From Treponema sp. (lineage in GTDB: Bacteria; Spirochaetota; Spirochaetia; Treponematales; Breznakiellaceae), in the NCBI GenBank assembly GCA_009784975.1, contig WQXG01000018.1:1-47836 (forward strand): a DNA stretch of 47,836 nucleotides, written 5' to 3'. The translations under genes and the position numbers were made by a program. Positions 39,291-45,953 of the stretch are shown here, piece after piece (the first letter of the stretch is position 1; each line of letters opens with the position of its first letter). The notes under the pieces were generated by a model, which was not told the origin of the DNA, did not search any database, and worked only from the letters and a program-made list of their open reading frames with translations.

Positions 39291-39382
39291 GGTAATTGAT
39301 ACCATACGTTTTCTACCGCACCACGCTACATATGGTGTAGGGGGGGTCGCGGGTACACTACGAAAAAGTGGTAATTGATACC
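39291..39382. repeat. 92-bp REP-like element, copy A
   Basis: Both ends are the 13-mer GGTAATTGATACC in direct orientation, 79 bp start to start. The interior contains TACCGCACCACGCTACATAT and GGTGTAGGGGGGG, then GGGTACACTACGAAAAAGT. CACCA and TGGTG can pair, and TTTTC plus ACCGC can pair with GCGGGT and GAAAA, giving an imperfect hairpin. Confidence 0.9.
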
Positions 39383-39402
39383 TTGGGAGCAGTCTGCAAT
39401 AA

Positions 39403-39431
39403 TTGAACTAATTTTTATATTGACATATAAT
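39403..39431 (+). promoter_or_regulatory. Promoter of the AAA-ATPase-like gene (leaderless)
   Basis: TTGAAC and perfect TATAAT with a 17-bp spacer; the expected start point coincides with the A of the ATG at 39438. No Shine-Dalgarno is present, so a leaderless mRNA is predicted. Confidence 0.55.
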
Positions 39432-39437
39432 TAAATC

Positions 39438-41009
39438 ATGAAGAGACAACTGCCAATTGGTATCCAAGATTTTGACAGAATCCGTGAAAATGGCTATTGT
39501 TATGTTGATAAAACAAAGATAATTCATCAATTAATTACCGGTTCCAGCAGTATATACTTTCTTTCCCGCCCCCGGCGCTTTGGCAAATCGCTCTTGTGTT
39601 CTACACTATGTACTATTTTCGAGGGTAAACGTGAACTTTTTAAAGAAATTGCCGGATACCCTGCTCTTGCAATTAATTCTCTTGATTGGGAGTGGAAAAA
39701 ACATCCGGTTATCAGAATTGATATGAATATTGGAAATTTCAAAGAAGGAACTGATTTTCTAAATTCTGCGTTAAATAACACTCTTAACAATATAGCACGA
39801 AGTTTTAACCTTGAACTTCGAGGAAACTATTCCTCTGAATTTTTTTCCAATCTTATTATAGATTTGAATAATAAATACAAAGAAAAAGCTGTCGTAATAA
39901 TTGATGAATATGATAAACCTTTATTAGATACAATGCTGGATGTATCTCTTCATAAAAACATTAGGGATGAATTAAAAGGATTTTATAGTATTTTAAAACC
40001 TTTCGGTAAATATCTGCGTTTTGTTTTTTTAACCGGTATAACCAAGTTTTCTCATGTTAGTTTATTTTCCGATTTAAATAATTTAGATGATTTAACCCTT
40101 GATCCTTTATATGCAGATATTTGCGGAATAACACAAGAAGAATTGGAAGCCAATTTTGAACCGGAAATTCAATCGATACTTAATGATACAAGTATGGAAC
40201 GGGATGATTATTTAAATGAACTGCGGAGATTTTATAATGGTTATAGATTTTCAAAAAATCCATTGAAGGTTTACAACCCTTTTGGTTTACTTAAACATTT
40301 TAAAAACGGAGACTTTTCATCTTATTGGTATGAAACCGGAACTCCCAGTTTTTTAGTAAATTTACTTAAAGAGCAAAAAATCAATATTTTAAACTTAAAC
40401 AATCTTCAGATTGATAATAACGATTTACATAAATACGATATAGAAAACATGAGAGCAGAACCTATTCTTTATCAAGCCGGTTATCTGACAATAAAAGACT
40501 ACAACAAAGAAACAAACCAATTCACTCTTGATTATCCAAACATCGAAGTAGAGTCATGTTTTGCTAAATCTTTATTAGATGAATATTTATTAACATCTAA
40601 CGAAACCGCAGGCAGTTTTAATACTCGCCTTATAAACGCAGTTGTCAAAGGCAGTATTGATGATACTATAAATACATTAAAACAATTCTTATCTTCTATT
40701 CCGTACGATATAATAAAAGACACAGAAAATTATTTCCAAACCGCAATACATCTTGTTTTCACGATGCTTGGTCTTAATTGCCGCAGCGAAGTACGCATCG
40801 CAGCCGGCAGAATTGACACATTAGTCGAAACAAAAAACTATGTTTACTGCTTTGAATTTAAACTTAACGGCACAGCAGAAGATGCTCTCGCTCAAATTAA
40901 TACCAAAGAATACTTACTGCCATGGGAAGGCAATACAAAAAAAATATTTAAAATCGGTGTCGATTTTGACTACGAGAAACGCAACATCGGAGAATGGAAA
41001 ACGGAGTAA
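39438..41009 (+). CDS. AAA-ATPase-like protein with C-terminal PDDEXK domain
   Basis: A 523-residue protein of the AAA-ATPase_like plus PDDEXK_9 (DUF1703) architecture. N-terminal MKRQLPIGIQDFDRIRENGY is followed by a P-loop RPRRFGKSLL (Lys50), Walker B VVIIDEYDKPLLD near 150 and the nuclease-like end CFEFKLNGTAEDALAQI near 475. Such proteins are abundant in gut bacteria and lack a firm function; a defence or mobile-element role is suspected. It lies between REP-like copy A and an MITE-like element, alone on the plus strand in this mosaic, and is AT-rich. Confidence 0.85.
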   Translation: MKRQLPIGIQDFDRIRENGYCYVDKTKIIHQLITGSSSIYFLSRPRRFGKSLLCSTLCTIFEGKRELFKEIAGYPALAINSLDWEWKKHPVIRIDMNIGNFKEGTDFLNSALNNTLNNIARSFNLELRGNYSSEFFSNLIIDLNNKYKEKAVVIIDEYDKPLLDTMLDVSLHKNIRDELKGFYSILKPFGKYLRFVFLTGITKFSHVSLFSDLNNLDDLTLDPLYADICGITQEELEANFEPEIQSILNDTSMERDDYLNELRRFYNGYRFSKNPLKVYNPFGLLKHFKNGDFSSYWYETGTPSFLVNLLKEQKINILNLNNLQIDNNDLHKYDIENMRAEPILYQAGYLTIKDYNKETNQFTLDYPNIEVESCFAKSLLDEYLLTSNETAGSFNTRLINAVVKGSIDDTINTLKQFLSSIPYDIIKDTENYFQTAIHLVFTMLGLNCRSEVRIAAGRIDTLVETKNYVYCFEFKLNGTAEDALAQINTKEYLLPWEGNTKKIFKIGVDFDYEKRNIGEWKTE

Positions 41010-41026
41010 ACCGAGGGTTGGCTAGG

Positions 41027-41223
41027 ACTCACACAAAGGCACAAAGGACACCAAGGCACGGAGATTGCCAAGGACTCACGCAGAGACGCAAAGACGCGGA
41101 GAACGCAGAGCTTTAATTCGAAATCTTCCCTTAATCCCTATAAATATATCGAAGCTATGAGAGATTTAATAGGGATAAAAGAAAAGATTTCAAACCACCG
41201 CTCCGCGCCTTTGTGTCTCCGGG
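41027..41223. repeat. MITE-like inverted-repeat element M1
   Basis: GC-rich left arm (ACTCACACAAAGGCACAAAG and ACTCACGCAGAGACGCAAAG) and right arm (CCGCGCCTTTGTGTCTCCGG) surround an AT-rich core running from CGAAATCTTCCCTTAATCCC to GGGATAAAAGAAAAGATTTC. In the core GAAATCTT pairs with AAGATTTC. It occupies the gap between the ATPase gene and REP copy B; no gene is seen there. Confidence 0.75.
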
Positions 41224-41227
41224 AAAT

Positions 41228-41319
41228 GGTAATTGATACCATACGTTTTCTACCGCACCACGCTACATATGGTGTAGGGGGGGTCGCGGGTACACTACGA
41301 AAAAGTGGTAATTGATACC
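41228..41319. repeat. 92-bp REP-like element, copy B
   Basis: Identical in layout to copy A (AT-segment ATACGTTTTCTA after the left 13-mer). Its right part, read on the minus strand, encodes KVSITTFS-stop of the transposase. Confidence 0.9.
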
Positions 41320-42155
41320 TTAAAGTCGAGTTTTATGTTTTGCGTTTTTTTTAATTCTGCCAGGCTGAATTTTCTGTTTTCTGTTGTGTGGGGGTAGACG
41401 TTTAGCTGGTATTTGCCGTACATGGTGTCGTCTTTGTCGTATTCGTAAATAAAATAATCTGCTGTTGGGGTGTAGTAACGCATATAGACTCGCATGGGTT
41501 TGTTGATTTTTGTGCCGCTTAATGACGGTATTTGTCTGACCGTTTTATAAAGTTTTTCCAGCTCTAATGCGTAAGTTCCGTAATATTTTATTGTTTTTTC
41601 CAGTTGCGCTGGCGGCAATAAATTTGCGACTATATACTGTACCGGCAATAACAGTTTTACGTCTCTGTACTTTGTTTGTTCAAACTGGTCATAGTCTACT
41701 AAATCTGTTAAGCCCTGTACTTTATAAAATGCTCCTGACGCTTTCCAATCTTGCGGCGTTTGTGAAAGACCTGCTTTCACCGGGTTCTGGTCGATGTAGT
41801 CCATTACAAAATCATATTCGTTTTGGTCTTTTATCGGTCTTGAATAATATGGTTGAGCGCCCCATAGGTGATCGGTGGAACCGTGTATAAAATTCCAGCG
41901 TTTTGCGGATTGTATCTTTATCCATTGCATTATTCTGCTCAAACCTGTTCCTTCCTCCGGCTGTATCAGCAGGTGTATATGTGTCGGCATGATACAAAAA
42001 TTTGTTAACCGAAAATGGAATTTGTCCTTTGCGTCCTGCAAGGTTAATTCCATTATTTTACGTCCCATTTTGTTTTCAAAAACCCTTATTTTATTGTTGG
42101 TTCTTGATGTAACGTGATAAAACGCACTTTCCGCAAGCTCTCTTTTTTTACGCAT
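41295..42155 (-). CDS. REP-associated tyrosine transposase (RAYT, Y1 HUH family)
   Basis: A 286-residue protein; the start MRKKRELAES has a strong AGGAGG at 7 nt, so a longer ORF start is rejected. HUH motif CIMPTHIHLLIQP (His59, His61) and catalytic Tyr120 in VMDYIDQNPVKAG are the Y1-transposase signatures; the layout with a following KxG and a long C-terminal domain fits RAYTs, which cleave and join single-stranded DNA hairpins (REPs). The last eight residues KVSITTFS and stop are encoded by the flanking repeat. It is probably a single-copy, domesticated-type enzyme that mobilises the 92-bp elements, but this is inference. Confidence 0.87.
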   Translation of the reverse strand: MRKKRELAESAFYHVTSRTNNKIRVFENKMGRKIMELTLQDAKDKFHFRLTNFCIMPTHIHLLIQPEEGTGLSRIMQWIKIQSAKRWNFIHGSTDHLWGAQPYYSRPIKDQNEYDFVMDYIDQNPVKAGLSQTPQDWKASGAFYKVQGLTDLVDYDQFEQTKYRDVKLLLPVQYIVANLLPPAQLEKTIKYYGTYALELEKLYKTVRQIPSLSGTKINKPMRVYMRYYTPTADYFIYEYDKDDTMYGKYQLNVYPHTTENRKFSLAELKKTQNIKLDFKVSITTFS

Positions 42156-42286
42156 TTTTTTGCCTCCTGACTGCCAGCATATTTTGCAAAAACAATCATA
42201 TATATATGGCACACAGATGCGTGGTGCTTGACCGAAAATGAAAAAAAAATGAAAAAAAATTTAAATGGTATAAAAATGTAAAAAAA

Positions 42287-42378
42287 GGTAATTGATACCT
42301 AGCATTTTTAACCGCACCACGCTACATATGGTGTAGGGGGGTCAGCGGGTACACTACGAAAAAGTGGTAATTGATACC
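42287..42378. repeat. 92-bp REP-like element, copy C
   Basis: Same 79-bp spacing; the variable segment reads TAGCATTTTTAA, as in copy G except for the first base. The right end is 18 bp from the DUF2442 stop codon. Confidence 0.9.
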
Positions 42379-42396
42379 CTAAGAAAACTAAAGTGA

Positions 42397-42642
42397 CTAC
42401 TTAATCTCAGGTTTGCTGTTATAATAAAGTTCATCAGGGCAAATATCTTGTCCATGCAGCCATTCAACACTTAAACCTGCAGGTTTTACAGTATTAAATA
42501 AAGTCAAATTCTTTAATTCGCTATATGGCTTAAAATCAAGGTATGGATTGACATCAAATATTCGTTTTTCATTATTACTGAATGTAACCAAAAGACAATA
42601 ATCAGATCGTGGTTCTACATCTATAGCTTTTGGACGTATCAT
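42397..42642 (-). CDS. DUF2442 protein (likely partner of DUF4160)
   Basis: An 81-residue protein with MIRPKAIDVEPRSDYCLLVT and FDVNPYLDFKPYSELKNLTLF, the usual DUF2442 landmarks. It follows a DUF4160 gene by 5 bp. These two families are found together widely and the pair is often suspected of being a TA system, but which partner is toxic is unknown. Confidence 0.75.
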   Translation of the reverse strand: MIRPKAIDVEPRSDYCLLVTFSNNEKRIFDVNPYLDFKPYSELKNLTLFNTVKPAGLSVEWLHGQDICPDELYYNSKPEIK

Positions 42643-42647
42643 GCAAT

Positions 42648-42914
42648 TTACCTTAATCCTTCAATTTTTACTACTTCACCGCTTTCACTCCAGGCAATCC
42701 AAGCGGCATTTAATTCATCTTCATGAAGCAACGCCCAGGCTTCCACAAGTTTTCTTTGTTTAGGCGGTAGTTCACCTTCAATGAGGTTAGCTTTAAAATC
42801 AAACACTCCCTCAAACTCGGCATACTTGGCATGGAAATGCGGTATATGGTGTTTGCTATTTAATTCCTTGTATATGTAAATTAGTATTCCATAAAATTGC
42901 GATATTAGCGGCAT
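42648..42914 (-). CDS. DUF4160 protein
   Basis: An 88-residue protein: SQFYGILIYIYKELNSKHHI PHFHAKYAEFEGVFDF, with the conserved HxPHFH stretch of DUF4160. AAGGAGAAAG precedes the ATG. A possible nuclease-like small domain; no function is established. First gene of a two-gene unit with DUF2442. Confidence 0.8.
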   Translation of the reverse strand: MPLISQFYGILIYIYKELNSKHHIPHFHAKYAEFEGVFDFKANLIEGELPPKQRKLVEAWALLHEDELNAAWIAWSESGEVVKIEGLR

Positions 42915-42938
42915 TTTTTATTCTTTCTCCTTACATTT

Positions 42939-42967
42939 AGTATACCACATGCAATGTTTTTTAGCAA
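42939..42967 (-). promoter_or_regulatory. Promoter of the DUF4160-DUF2442 pair
   Basis: TATACT with TTGCTA 17 bp upstream on the minus strand; leader about 18 nt, with an AAGGAG Shine-Dalgarno. Confidence 0.45.
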
Positions 42968-43105
42968 GTTTTTTTGGTGATAGAGTCTCGGCAGACAACC
43001 GGATTTTTTCTCGCCAAGGACGCCATAAATCCTTACGGGCTATCGGCAGTGTTATTTCGTTTTTCCTGCGCTCCCAACCCGCCGCCCGCTCCTCTTCCCC
43101 CGCGT

Positions 43106-43143
43106 CTCAGCGGGTACACTACGAAAAAGTGGTAATTGATACC
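43106..43143. repeat. Partial REP-like element, copy D (right end only)
   Basis: Only TCAGCGGGTACACTACGAAA through the right 13-mer remains; the left half is replaced by unrelated GC-rich sequence (42970-43105) in which I see no gene. Confidence 0.85.
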
Positions 43144-43148
43144 TTGAA

Positions 43149-43342
43149 GGAGATTGCCAAGGACTCACGCAGAGACGCAAAGACGCGGAGAACGCAGAGC
43201 TTTAATTCGAAATCTTGCCTTAATCCCTAGAAATATATCAAAGCTATAAAAGATTTCTAAAATTAAAGAAAAGATTTCAAACCACCGCTCCGCGCCTTTG
43301 TGTCTTTGTGTGAGTCTTAGCGCATTCCTCTGCGTGAGTCAT
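43149..43342. repeat. MITE-like element M2
   Basis: Left arm ACTCACGCAGAGACGCAAAG and right arm CGCGCCTTTGTGTCTTTGTG are complementary apart from A/G changes. The core contains GAAATCTTGCCTTAATCCC and ends AAAGAAAAGATTTCAAACC. The stretch 42915-43355 between genes holds only copy D and this element. Confidence 0.75.
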
Positions 43343-43355
43343 AGCAGTCTTTTCC

Positions 43356-43553
43356 TTACGCTGTAACAGGAGTATTTGCGCCTCTGGCGGGATCAAATTG
43401 CACAGAATTGTTTGTTTCGTATACAGGTTCGGGTGTTTTAACAAGACACATTTCATCGTACTCGCGCATTCTGGCTTCCGAAATAGCCCCAATCTTATAA
43501 TTTTCTGATGCATTTTCATGTATCATTTCTAAAATGTCACTTTTGCATTTCAT
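43356..43553 (-). CDS. Antitoxin-like protein, apparently truncated
   Basis: A 65-residue protein whose first 40 residues (MKCKSDILEMIHENASENYK IGAISEARMREYDEMCLV) match the N-terminus of XRE-type antitoxins that accompany RelE-like toxins. The expected HTH continuation is missing; the tail KTPEPVYETNNSVQFDPARG looks unrelated. It is either a natural short form or cut by repeat insertion, since MITE-like M2 lies just downstream. It starts 11 bp after the toxin gene. Confidence 0.6.
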   Translation of the reverse strand: MKCKSDILEMIHENASENYKIGAISEARMREYDEMCLVKTPEPVYETNNSVQFDPARGANTPVTA

Positions 43554-43564
43554 ATTCTAACCTC

Positions 43565-43930
43565 CTAAAAAATCTCTATTAATGTTCCATTTCTTTTTCT
43601 TATTTCAATTTGTTCATCAGTTAAAGCAAATTGGTCTTTTGCATCGGTTTTAAAAGCCTGTAATTCCTTATTACTTATATTATCCTTGTCAGACTTTGCA
43701 AAACCATAAACAAAAAAAGTACGAAATCCACTTTTAAAATACACAATTATTCTATAGCCGCTTGCTTTTCCTTCTCCTGATCTAGCTTGTCTAATTTTAT
43801 AAACACCTCCGCCAAGATCTGTAACAACCTGACCAGATTCAAACTGTTTTAAAATTTCCTTTAATTCTATATCAGAGATTCCCTCTTTCCCGGCAAATCG
43901 ACTGAACCGTGTATATTTGAAGATTCTCAC
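43565..43930 (-). CDS. RelE-type toxin (PF06296-like)
   Basis: A 121-residue protein starting at GTG: MRIFKYTRFSRFAGKEGISD, then KIRQARSGEGKASGYRIIVYFKSG and TFFVYGFAKSDKDNISNKEL, typical of RelE-fold toxins of the RelE/RelB (DUF1044-like) subgroup. The toxin gene precedes the antitoxin gene, as is common for this subgroup. It is expected to be a ribosome-associated mRNase. Confidence 0.82.
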   Translation of the reverse strand: MRIFKYTRFSRFAGKEGISDIELKEILKQFESGQVVTDLGGGVYKIRQARSGEGKASGYRIIVYFKSGFRTFFVYGFAKSDKDNISNKELQAFKTDAKDQFALTDEQIEIRKRNGTLIEIF

Positions 43931-43936
43931 TTATTA

Positions 43937-43965
43937 ATTATAACAAAAAATAAAACTTATTTCAA
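43937..43965 (-). promoter_or_regulatory. Promoter of the RelE-type toxin gene (leaderless)
   Basis: Perfect TATAAT and TTGAAA with a 17-bp spacer; the expected start point falls on the GTG start codon at 43930. Confidence 0.55.
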
Positions 43966-43982
43966 GATAAATTTCTATATTT

Positions 43983-44222
43983 TTGGCAAGGGCTCACACA
44001 AAGGCACAAAGGACACGGAGGCACGGAGGTTGGCAAGGACTCTCGCGGAGACGCTGAGATCGCTGAGATCGCGGAGCCGTAATACGAAATCTTGCCTTTA
44101 TCCTTAGAACTATATCGAAGCTATGAGAGATTTAATAGGGATAAAAGAAAAGATTTCAAACCAAAACTCTGCGTCCTCTGCGCCCCCGCGTCTCTGCGAG
44201 AGTCTTGGCAAACTATTTGCAA
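43983..44222. repeat. MITE-like element M3
   Basis: Arms CTCTCGCGGAGACGC and GCGTCTCTGCGAGAG are complementary with one mismatch; the core has GAAATCTTGCCTTTATCC pairing with GGGATAAAAGAAAAGATTTC. It accounts for nearly all of the gene-free stretch 43966-44269, with copy E. Confidence 0.8.
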
Positions 44223-44230
44223 CGAAAAAT

Positions 44231-44242
44231 GGTAATTGATAC
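44231..44242. repeat. Single 13-mer of the REP-like family, copy E
   Basis: GGTAATTGATAC followed by AGTTGC rather than the usual C; no interior follows. The 30 bp to its left are the same as those left of copy G. Confidence 0.75.
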
Positions 44243-44269
44243 AGTTGCAGTGGAAAGGGGTGGGCTGTT

Positions 44270-44638
44270 TTAGGTTTGGGGGTTAAGAGAACGAATCTCT
44301 AGCTGTGCCCGCAGGGCTGCGATTTCTGCGTCTTTGTCAGCGAGTTTAGCATCTTTCTCGTTTACAACAACCTGCCATTTCTCCCGCTCTTGCTGCAACA
44401 CCCATCTTTCACGGGCATCCAGATCACGTAAGGCTTTTTCACGGCGTTCGTACATATCTCGGGCACGTTCATCGTCGCTTAATTTGCGCAAAGTAACTAC
44501 GGCTTTTTTAACCTGCGGGTTTTTTTCGGCTACCATATTTAACTCCTCCTCACTTTCTGCATTTATAAATTTTGCCCAGTCATACAACTCAGTCCCGTCA
44601 TCGCCATCCGGCAATTTTTCAAGTTCAACATTGGGCAA
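44270..44638 (-). pseudogene. C-terminal fragment of an Rpn-family (PD-(D/E)XK) nuclease
   Basis: About 122 residues: ELEKLPDGDDGTELYDWAKFINAESEEELNM followed by NPQVKKAVVTLRKLSDDERAR and a charged coiled coil. This matches the C-terminal part of Rpn/TIGR01784 recombination-promoting nucleases as I know them. The catalytic N-terminal domain is absent: the readable frame begins at a TTG right beside the 13-mer copy F, so the gene is truncated at the repeat. The fragment lies between copies E and F in direct orientation. Confidence 0.7.
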
Positions 44639-44639
44639 T

Positions 44640-44652
44640 GGTAATTGATACC
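44640..44652. repeat. Single 13-mer of the REP-like family, copy F
   Basis: GGTAATTGATACC alone, abutting the truncated Rpn gene and 12 bp from the stop of the following antitoxin gene. Confidence 0.85.
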
Positions 44653-44664
44653 TTGGTTCATCTT

Positions 44665-45051
44665 CTATAAAAAAACTCTGTAATCAATATTCAGCGCTTT
44701 CCCTATTTTTAATGCATTTTGTTTTCCAATAGACCGCCTGCCATTTTCCATGTCAGAGATGTGTCTTCTGGGAATACCTGTTAATTCAGAAAGCATTACT
44801 TGTGTGATATTTTCTTTACACCTTGCCCCAATAAGCATATTGGATTGTGTACGTTCGGTAAACAGACCTTTTGCATCTGCCCATTCTTGCGTATCATTTA
44901 CGAATTCACATCCTTGCTTTTTAAGATAAAGCCTTATTTGATTTGCGTTTACCGCAGGGCATGATATTAAAAACGTCATATTACCAGTATTCGTTTTAGT
45001 ATTTACTGTGTGTTTTACTTTAATAGGGGGCTTTTTCGTGTGTGCCAACAT
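44665..45051 (-). CDS. XRE-family antitoxin
   Basis: A 128-residue protein from MLAHTKKPPI; a longer ORF would run through the toxin gene. The N-terminal half (LISCPAVNANQIRLYLKKQG) is variable; the C-terminal half is a HTH_3 domain (ITQVMLSELTGIPRRHISDM ENGRRSIGKQNALKIGKALN). The gene overlaps the toxin gene by 32 bp, so the pair is coupled, toxin first. Confidence 0.8.
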   Translation of the reverse strand: MLAHTKKPPIKVKHTVNTKTNTGNMTFLISCPAVNANQIRLYLKKQGCEFVNDTQEWADAKGLFTERTQSNMLIGARCKENITQVMLSELTGIPRRHISDMENGRRSIGKQNALKIGKALNIDYRVFL

Positions 45052-45298
45052 AAATAATCTCCACCAATTTAACTTTATTTTTTCCAATATCTTCCCACAC
45101 AGCAACGTATGTAGGTTTACCCTTTTTAAGATGGCAATGATGCTTATTGTTGGGTAATTTACTATAATTTGACCAATTCCCGCGCACCGGACCGCATTTT
45201 TCAATTTCAGAAACTAATAATTCCATAGCAGCCGCTACTTTAGAAGGCAAACGTTTCTTTTTGAATTTTCCTCTGTTGTATATTACTTGCCAATTCAT
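45020..45298 (-). CDS. RelE-family toxin
   Basis: A 92-residue protein beginning MNWQVIYNRGKFKKKRLPSK with a RelE-like core: EIEKCGPVRGNWSNYSKLPN and HHCHLKKGKPTYVAVW, ending VEIIYVGTHEKAPY. This subgroup pairs with XRE antitoxins. I prefer this ATG because homologues start MxWxVIYN; a GTG three codons earlier is possible. A tandem operator overlaps the -10 box. Confidence 0.82.
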   Translation of the reverse strand: MNWQVIYNRGKFKKKRLPSKVAAAMELLVSEIEKCGPVRGNWSNYSKLPNNKHHCHLKKGKPTYVAVWEDIGKNKVKLVEIIYVGTHEKAPY

Positions 45299-45301
45299 CT
45301 T

Positions 45302-45339
45302 ATGCACTAATTATTGGTGCATTTAAGTTGTTTTGTCAA
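45302..45339 (-). promoter_or_regulatory. Promoter/operator of the XRE-RelE pair
   Basis: TTGACA (45334-45339) and AATAAT (45310-45315) with an 18-bp spacer. The perfect inverted repeat ATGCAC-N9-GTGCAT (45302-45307 and 45317-45322) brackets the -10 box, a good site for the antitoxin. Confidence 0.55.
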
Positions 45340-45357
45340 GACCCCCTGATAAGAATG

Positions 45358-45598
45358 TGGCAAGGGCTCACGCAAAGGCACAAAGGACACAAAGGCACGG
45401 AGGTTGGCAAGGACTCTCGCGGAGACGCTGAGACGCGGAGATCGCGGAGCCGTAATACGAAATCTTGCCTTTATCCTTAGAACTATATCGAAGCTATGAG
45501 AGATTTAATAGGGATAAAAGAAAAGATTTCGTACCACAACTCTGCGTTCCCTGCGCCCCCCGCGTCTCAGCGAGAGTCTTGGCAAACTATTTGCAACG
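45358..45598. repeat. MITE-like element M4
   Basis: Near-identical to M3 in arms and core, including the shared flank GGCAAACTATTTGCAACGAA before the 13-mer. It is the first of several repeats filling the gene-free stretch 45308-46000. Confidence 0.8.
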
Positions 45599-45604
45599 AA
45601 AAAT

Positions 45605-45696
45605 GGTAATTGATACCAAGCATTTTTAACCGCACCACGCTACATATGGTGTAGGGGGGTCAGCGGGTACACTACGAAAAAGTGGTAATTGATACC
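45605..45696. repeat. 92-bp REP-like element, copy G
   Basis: Full copy with AAGCATTTTTAA as the variable segment; 79-bp spacing. Confidence 0.9.
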
Positions 45697-45705
45697 TTGG
45701 CGGCT

Positions 45706-45850
45706 CAAAGACGCGGAGAACGCAGAGCTTTAATTCGAAATCTTGCCTTAATCCCTAGAAATATATCAAAGCTATAAAAGATTTCTAAAATTAAAGAAAA
45801 GATTTCAAACCACCGCTCTGTGCCTTTGTGTCTTTGTGTGAGTCTTAGCA
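45706..45850. repeat. MITE-like element M5
   Basis: Shorter copy: left arm begins CAAAGACGCGGAGAACGCAG, core as in M2, right arm GTGCCTTTGTGTCTTTGTGT. Confidence 0.75.
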
Positions 45851-45861
45851 CATAGGGAAAT

Positions 45862-45953
45862 GGTAATTGATACCTTACGTTTTCTACCGCACCACGCTAC
45901 ATATGGTGTAGGGGGGTCAGCGGGTACACTACGAAAAAGTGGTAATTGATACC
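45862..45953. repeat. 92-bp REP-like element, copy H
   Basis: Full copy with TTACGTTTTCTA as the variable segment; 79-bp spacing. Its right end lies about 47 bp from the stop of the lipoprotein-type gene. Confidence 0.9.

What the first reader, a model, noticed from the sequence alone, without database searches (positions are those of the whole stretch)
39291..45953. A 92-bp element with fixed 13-bp direct-repeat ends punctuates a cassette-like mosaic
Seen: GGTAATTGATACC occurs at 39291, 39370, 41228, 41307, 42287, 42366, 43131, 44231 (last base differs), 44640, 45605, 45684, 45862 and 45941, always in the same orientation. Five full copies have exactly 79 bp between their paired 13-mers and a nearly constant interior. 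Between copies lie single modules: AAA/PDDEXK gene, transposase, DUF2442/DUF4160 pair, RelE pair, Rpn fragment, XRE-RelE pair, surface protein. Minus-strand modules end 12-47 bp from a 13-mer, or overlap it. Inferred: the repeats serve as insertion or recombination points for small modules, integron-like in layout but without an integrase or attC consensus here.
Basis: partly seen in the sequence, partly recalled or inferred. Interest (0 to 1): 0.78.

Follow-up and report, generated by a model that had tools for sequence, protein, structure and literature searches.

The report
RAYT-linked palindromic repeats in Treponema
The repeated 92-base element is most likely a small passive mobile element tied to a neighbouring single-strand-DNA transposase gene in a termite-gut Treponema; its 13-base ends differ between species, which makes the genus useful for studying how such enzymes and their DNA signals change together, while the idea that the repeats capture gene cassettes is only weakly supported.

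Summary
In detail: 12 exact copies (plus one with one mismatch) of GGTAATTGATACC, all in one orientation, with five 92-bp elements 90-100% alike. The genome has 20 exact copies, reversed control 0. In another Treponema (G015) a 78%-identical RAYT is bracketed by the same kind of element but with another 13-mer. In the genus, 10 of 14 related RAYTs have GGTR-N5-YACC palindromes within 350 bp, and two genomes with two RAYTs have different ones beside each. I read the element as a non-autonomous, RAYT-dependent repeat (REP/TIR kind) with new sequence and layout. Cassette capture is weakly supported: one exchange at a 13-mer is visible, but the DUF2442/DUF4160 module occurs in three congeners at 92-93% identity without such repeats. 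The G015 RAYT island lies before a gene that in 13 of 16 examined congeners directly follows another gene, so the unit may move. No activity was tested.

The parts
39291..39382 (+). 92-bp element E1 (13-mers at both ends, direct orientation)
41228..41319 (+). 92-bp element E2, identical to E1; on the minus strand it encodes the end and the stop codon of the RAYT gene
41295..42155 (-). RAYT (REP-associated tyrosine transposase), 286 aa, start codon chosen at 42155; HIH and YIDQNP motifs; C-terminal ~130 aa in no known family
42287..42378 (+). 92-bp element E3, 5' of the RAYT gene
43110..43143 (+). left-truncated element, right 34 bp kept
44231..44243 (+). single 13-mer with changed last base, left border of the Rpn fragment
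44270..44638 (-). 5'-truncated Rpn-type (PDDEXK_2) gene fragment lying between two 13-mers
44640..44652 (+). single 13-mer, right border of the Rpn fragment
45605..45696 (+). 92-bp element E4 (98.9% identical to E3)
45862..45953 (+). 92-bp element E5
39438..41009 (+). AAA-ATPase_like/PDDEXK_9 gene between E1 and E2
42397..42914 (-). DUF2442/DUF4160 pair between E3 and the truncated element; found in three congeners without the repeats
43356..43930 (-). RelE toxin gene (43565-43930) with a 65-aa ORF
44665..45307 (-). XRE-type HTH gene with an overlapping small ORF (second ORF without a family match)
41019..41225 (.). second repeat family, copy 1
43149..43325 (.). second repeat family, copy 2
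43984..44213 (.). second repeat family, copy 3
45358..45587 (.). second repeat family, copy 4
45709..45853 (.). second repeat family, copy 5

Best explanation
The 92-bp element is a non-autonomous repeat of the REP/TIR kind that depends on the RAYT gene lying between two of its copies. The 13-bp imperfect palindrome GGTA-ATTGA-TACC marks its ends. By analogy with E. coli TnpA(REP), the RAYT would bind folded single-stranded copies, cut beside them and rejoin, and so spread elements over the genome. The cluster in the window would come from repeated local insertion, segmental duplication and recombination between copies, in a stretch that also collects toxin-antitoxin modules and a second repeat family. 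Shown: sequence, copy number, RAYT identity, bracketing of the RAYT in two species, palindromes beside most related RAYTs, and agreement of palindrome type with RAYT lineage. Inferred: that the RAYT recognises the 13-mer, and every step of cutting, joining and spreading.
For: RAYT by curated cut-off and nearest solved structure TnpArep 4er8. The RAYT lies between elements in this genome and, with 78% identity, in G015, where the 13-mer is GGTAGCAGGTACC. 10 of 14 related RAYTs have a strict GGTR-N5-YACC within 350 bp: 36 sites near the genes (two of them inside coding sequence) against 10 in about 46 kb farther out. G009 and G049 each have two RAYTs with different palindromes. GGTA versus GGTG beside the gene needs 2 changes on the RAYT tree; 4 of 1000 label shuffles do as well. 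GGTAATTGATACC: 20 copies here, 6 in all in 58 other genomes. Motifs read beside the RAYTs of G009 and G011 are most frequent in just those genomes, 20 and 19 sites, ranks 1 and 2 of 39.
Against: 4 of 14 related RAYTs lack a strict palindrome nearby, and the 4 distant RAYTs have none. The motif read beside the G059 RAYT has one site in that genome. G006 and G001 have 110 and 39 GGTGAYTGWCACC sites but no RAYT match at E 1e-10, in genomes 70% and 83% complete. This genome has about 48 GGTAGCWGSTACC sites but one RAYT match, beside another 13-mer. Copy number is low for a REP. Compensatory change in the internal hairpins does not exceed shuffles. Four motif labels of the tree test were read by eye from degenerate copies, one RAYT had no label, and 7 of 16 inner branches are open.
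Confidence: 0.7

Rival explanations
1. The 13-mers are mainly recombination points of a mosaic, like dRS3 repeats in neisserial intergenic mosaic elements: inserts are swapped between short palindromes by homologous or site-specific recombination, and the RAYT is just one insert. This is.
For: One visible exchange at a 13-mer, element interior against Rpn fragment; arrays of 13-mers with changing spacers in G049 and G041; dRS3 arrays lie near surface genes (PMC3898611, passages), as does this cluster.
Against: The palindromes go with RAYT genes in the genus; the one module followed up sits in three congeners without the repeats; only one exchange seen.
Confidence: 0.18
2. The element is a regulatory or terminator-like hairpin kept for its effect on neighbouring transcripts, and the link with the RAYT is secondary.
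For: Five of the six minus-strand modules end 0-47 bp from, or inside, a 13-mer; three + strands fold better than shuffles.
Against: No Rfam match of note; compensatory change not above shuffles; species-private sequence with near-identical copies in one cluster.
Confidence: 0.07
3. A MITE of a classical DDE transposase.
For: Short element with fixed ends; G002-type copies have inverted ends.
Against: Ends are direct in this species; no target duplication was noticed in the printed flanks (not tested formally); the transposase between copies is a RAYT.
Confidence: 0.03
4. Integron-like cassette array.
For: Single small modules between repeats of one orientation.
Against: No integrase among the ten proteins scanned; repeats also occur singly over the genome; the tested module is free of repeats elsewhere.
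Confidence: 0.02

Closest known systems
RAYT/TnpA(REP) with REP, BIME and REPIN repeats, 'REPtrons' (PMC8266576, PMC6006769)
   Same: A RAYT gene flanked by palindromic repeats that are also dispersed in the genome; different RAYTs with their own repeats; in G002 doublets with inverted ends, as in REPINs.
   Different: 13-bp palindrome GGTR-N5-YACC rather than a 20-50 nt hairpin preceded by GTAG; direct ends in this species; low copy number; unassigned C-terminal domain; RAYT loci share no neighbours between most species.
TIRYT/TIRtrons, RAYT-like genes flanked by other repeats (PMC3733652)
   Same: RAYT-type gene flanked by repeats other than GTAG REPs, some self-complementary, with moderately abundant genomic families in dimers or clusters.
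   Different: Ends direct here; sequence does not fit GGGGWSAS; none of the HTH-type C-terminal domains reported for subclass 2.1 in PMC6006769 was found.
Neisserial dRS3 / NIME arrays (PMC3898611)
   Same: Short palindromes (ATTCCC-N8-GGGAAT) flank varied spacers in arrays, often near surface genes.
   Different: No sequence relation seen; the partner discussed there is a phage integrase, here a RAYT.
IS200/IS605 elements
   Same: Y1 HUH transposase with hairpins on both sides.
   Different: IS200 model below its cut-off (33.9 against 55 bits); one copy per genome here.

Membership tests
REP/RAYT (REPtron) | transposase is a RAYT (HUH, Y---NP; curated model) | tested here: met
   NF047646 88.1 bits, cut-off 80; 7 of 7 full-length homologues match the model at E<=0.001; HIH/HVH and YIDQNP kept in 7 of 7
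REP/RAYT (REPtron) | RAYT gene flanked by palindromic repeats | tested here: met
   both sides in this genome and in G015; strict palindrome within 350 bp in 10 of 14 related RAYTs
REP/RAYT (REPtron) | repeat dispersed in high copy number | tested here: inconclusive
   20 exact copies, 12 of them in one cluster
REP/RAYT (REPtron) | GTAG or GTGG directly 5' of the repeat hairpin | tested here: inconclusive
   the 13-mer has none; CGTAG stands inside each element next to the right 13-mer (read), role unknown
REP/RAYT (REPtron) | inverted doublets (REPIN/BIME) | tested here: not met
   direct ends in the window; met in G002-type elements
REP/RAYT (REPtron) | RAYT cuts and joins its repeat | not testable with these tools
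   needs protein and single-stranded DNA
TIRYT/TIRtron | gene flanked by terminal inverted repeats | tested here: not met
   direct orientation at the window RAYT
TIRYT/TIRtron | GGGGWSAS motif (majority of TIRs) | tested here: not met
   absent from the 13-mer; one such motif within 350 bp of, or in, the window RAYT gene
TIRYT (subclass 2.1) | C-terminal HTH-type domain | tested here: not met
   no Pfam HTH at E<=10 in five C-termini
Integron | tyrosine integrase next to the array | tested here: not met
   none among ten proteins scanned; rest of the genome not searched
Integron | attC sites | not tested
   no attC model was run
IS200/IS605 | TnpA of IS200 type above curated cut-off | tested here: not met
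   33.9 against 55 bits
dRS3/NIME | ATTCCC-N8-GGGAAT repeats | tested here: not met
   13-mer differs by inspection

The most novel reading that the evidence does not exclude
A RAYT-based exchange system: a RAYT unit framed by direct copies of its own palindrome moves between loci as one piece, and its palindromes are borders between which other DNA (an element interior, a gene fragment, possibly small modules) is swapped, while the palindrome's sequence drifts together with the RAYT from species to species.
Probability: 0.2. Interest if true: 0.75.

Novelty: new variant of a known kind. Interest (0 to 1): 0.5.

Why it matters
How RAYTs and their repeats change together is open. This genus offers many related RAYTs, in some genomes two, beside 13-bp palindromes that differ mostly in the loop and one stem position, so recognition could be read off a natural series. 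[quoted passage not shown]

Tried and rejected
Integron and DDE-transposon readings: disfavoured (no integrase among the proteins scanned; a RAYT between the copies). Proof of a conserved hairpin by covariation: the internal hairpins pair in 80% (A1) and 95% (A2) of cells, but compensatory changes do not exceed shuffles. The two inverted 13-mers of the G002-type elements change together at one pair (2 of 8 distinct sequences; 21 of 500 shuffles reach it for cells, 240 of 500 for pairs). Orthologous locus of the island: not found. Another copy of the Rpn fragment in this genome: none at E 1e-5. Element core or this RAYT in viral contigs: none, by exact patterns. Fold of the RAYT C-terminal domain: mean pLDDT 43.9, so no fold search was run. 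Prediction that the motif beside the G059 RAYT is frequent there: failed. My note says 11 of 14 for palindromes near RAYTs; recounting one search gives 10 of 14. One search covered 18 of the 19 RAYT loci of the genus; G059 was read by eye.
Full report
What is there. GGTAATTGATACC is present as described: 12 exact copies and one with a changed last base, all on the + strand. A dinucleotide model expects 0.0014 exact copies in the window and 0.08 in the genome; the genome has 20 and 0 of the reversed control. Five full elements are 90.2-100% identical; E1 and E2 are identical, E3 and E4 98.9%. The 13-mer is an imperfect palindrome, GGTA-ATTGA-TACC. The + strands of three elements fold better than shuffles (z -3.2, -3.4, -4.0); two minus strands less clearly (-1.7, -1.5).

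The missing piece. The gene at 41295-42155 (-), between E2 and E3, is a RAYT: NCBIfam REP_Tyr_transpos 88.1 bits against a cut-off of 80, the IS200 model 33.9 against 55. The 7 full-length homologues all match the RAYT model. The only solved relative found by sequence is TnpArep, 4er8. HIH/HVH and YIDQNP are kept in all seven; Y---NP is the class-2 signature in PMC6006769 (passages read). The C-terminal ~130 residues reach no Pfam cut-off and no PHROG. E2 supplies the RAYT's last residues and stop codon.

A second species. G015 carries a RAYT of 78% identity bracketed by elements of the same kind, again with the stop codon inside the element, but with the 13-mer GGTAGCAGGTACC and diverged left ends. 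A small ORF lies between its first two elements. The island ends about 60 bp before a HAD-like gene (name recalled from sequence). That gene was found in 34 of 39 genomes of the genus. I looked at the upstream region in 16 genomes besides G015: in 13 it directly follows a conserved gene (11 of 13 by eye; G048 and G020 by ORF); in G021 (one of its two copies), G059 and this genome it does not. The left border of the G015 island is cut off by the contig end, so insertion is likely but its left junction is unseen. Between RAYT neighbourhoods of 7 species only the RAYT is shared, except one ORF of G011 and G059. Either the RAYT unit moves or its surroundings are rearranged.

A genus-wide set of palindromes. 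GGTAATTGATACC is nearly private to this species: 6 copies in all in 5 of 58 other genomes. GGTGAYTGWCACC occurs in 24 of 36 genus genomes and 4 of 23 others, up to 110 sites in G006; reversed control 0 in the genus genomes. GGTAGCWGSTACC has about 48 sites here and occurs in 12 of 36 genus genomes and 4 of 23 others; reversed control 0 here, at most 1 per strand in genus genomes, at most 3 elsewhere. GGTRYCWGRYACC occurs in 31 of 39 genus genomes, with reversed-control counts of 1-2 in five of them. Within 350 bp of 14 related RAYTs, 10 have a strict GGTR-N5-YACC; the 4 more distant RAYTs have none. GGGGWSAS, the TIRYT motif, is seen 1-4 times by the distant RAYTs but also 0-2 times by the related ones, so it separates them poorly. 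Near regions held 36 sites (two inside coding sequence), about 46 kb farther out 10. G009 and G049 each have two RAYTs with different palindromes beside them. On a RAYT tree GGTA or GGTG beside the gene needs 2 changes; 4 of 1000 label shuffles do as well. Limits: four labels come from degenerate copies read by eye, one RAYT (G015b) has no label, 7 of 16 inner branches are open. Motifs read beside RAYTs were looked up genome-wide: G009 (20 sites) and G011 (19) rank first and second of 39, G044 without such a RAYT match has 18, and G059, where many were expected, has one. G006 and G001 hold many GGTGAYTGWCACC sites without a RAYT match at E 1e-10, in incomplete genomes.

Forms of the element. 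By eye, 6 of the 8 copies of the 13-mer outside the window stand beside a related hairpin core (ACGCTATATATAGCGT-like; the one on C68 weakly); C26 and C28 do not. A 91-bp element on C21 has the whole layout with a changed left 13-mer. In G002 the elements are 75-76 bp with inverted 13-mers, each followed by such a core, and this genome has one of that type on C27. Compensatory change in the cores does not exceed shuffles.

The cassette idea. For: blocks 43984-44242 and 45358-45616 are 95% identical and part at the 13-mer; one continues with the 66-bp element interior, the other with a 396-bp piece carrying a 5'-truncated Rpn-type gene, and both close with another 13-mer followed by TTGG. Against: the DUF4160 protein of the DUF2442/DUF4160 pair is 92-93% identical in G014, G007 and G048; DNA homology covers about 42415-42924 and the flanks are unrelated; none of the three loci holds a strict GGTR-N5-YACC, though L119 (G014) has AGTGTCAGACACC, one base off. 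Of 29 fetched loci outside the window 25 hold none (30 of the 35 matches were fetched). This module thus travels without these repeats. A second repeat family, 145-230 bp, sits five times among the 13-mers, two copies with 26-nt inverted arms, and may also have driven rearrangement.

Known and new. RAYTs with REP repeats (PMC8266576: abstract, introduction and one discussion section read) and RAYT-like genes with other repeats, TIRtrons (PMC3733652: one section and passages read; PMC6006769: two sections and passages read), are known kinds. The present set differs by its 13-bp palindrome, direct ends in this species, the unassigned C-terminal domain and the unlike RAYT loci. The layout resembles neisserial dRS3/NIME arrays (PMC3898611, passages read). 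A library search for six of the 13-mers found one paper, on a human gene. Searches for RAYT with Treponema and related terms listed no paper on this subject. Most subscription papers are not held, and Bertels et al. 2017 did not appear in the listings, so absence from print is not established. I file this as a new variant of a known kind.

Noticed in passing
41019-41225, 43149-43325, 43984-44213, 45358-45587, 45709-45853: A second repeat family (145-230 bp) alternates with the 92-bp elements; two copies have 26-nt inverted arms. Similar sequence flanks the DUF2442/DUF4160 pair on one side in G014 and G007 (by eye).
   Followed up: partly
own genome, e.g. L105:430-494, L106:317-355, L107:387-425: About 48 sites of GGTAGCWGSTACC, often in doublets about 26 bp apart, although the only RAYT match lies beside another 13-mer.
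   Followed up: no
window 41298-41708 (-) and homologues: RAYT C-terminal ~130 aa shared by 7 species, with no convincing Pfam or PHROG family.
   Followed up: partly
upstream of RAYT genes, e.g. window about 42200-42220 (-): TATATA within 80 bp before the start codon in 17 of 19 RAYT loci, often as GCCATATATA; role unknown.
   Followed up: no
L101 (G049:C22) 1020-1411: Array of ten GGTGTCAATCACC copies 37-57 bp apart, next to a RAYT gene.
   Followed up: no
L099 (G014:C16) 474-1742: Two GGTGACAATCACC copies with similar flanks frame a small module; the right copy lies 23 bp before a gene that looks like a phosphofructokinase (name recalled), whose start seems duplicated at the left copy.
   Followed up: no
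window 42415-42924: DUF2442/DUF4160 pair: DUF4160 92-93% identical in G014, G007 and G048 in other contexts, which suggests horizontal transfer.
   Followed up: partly
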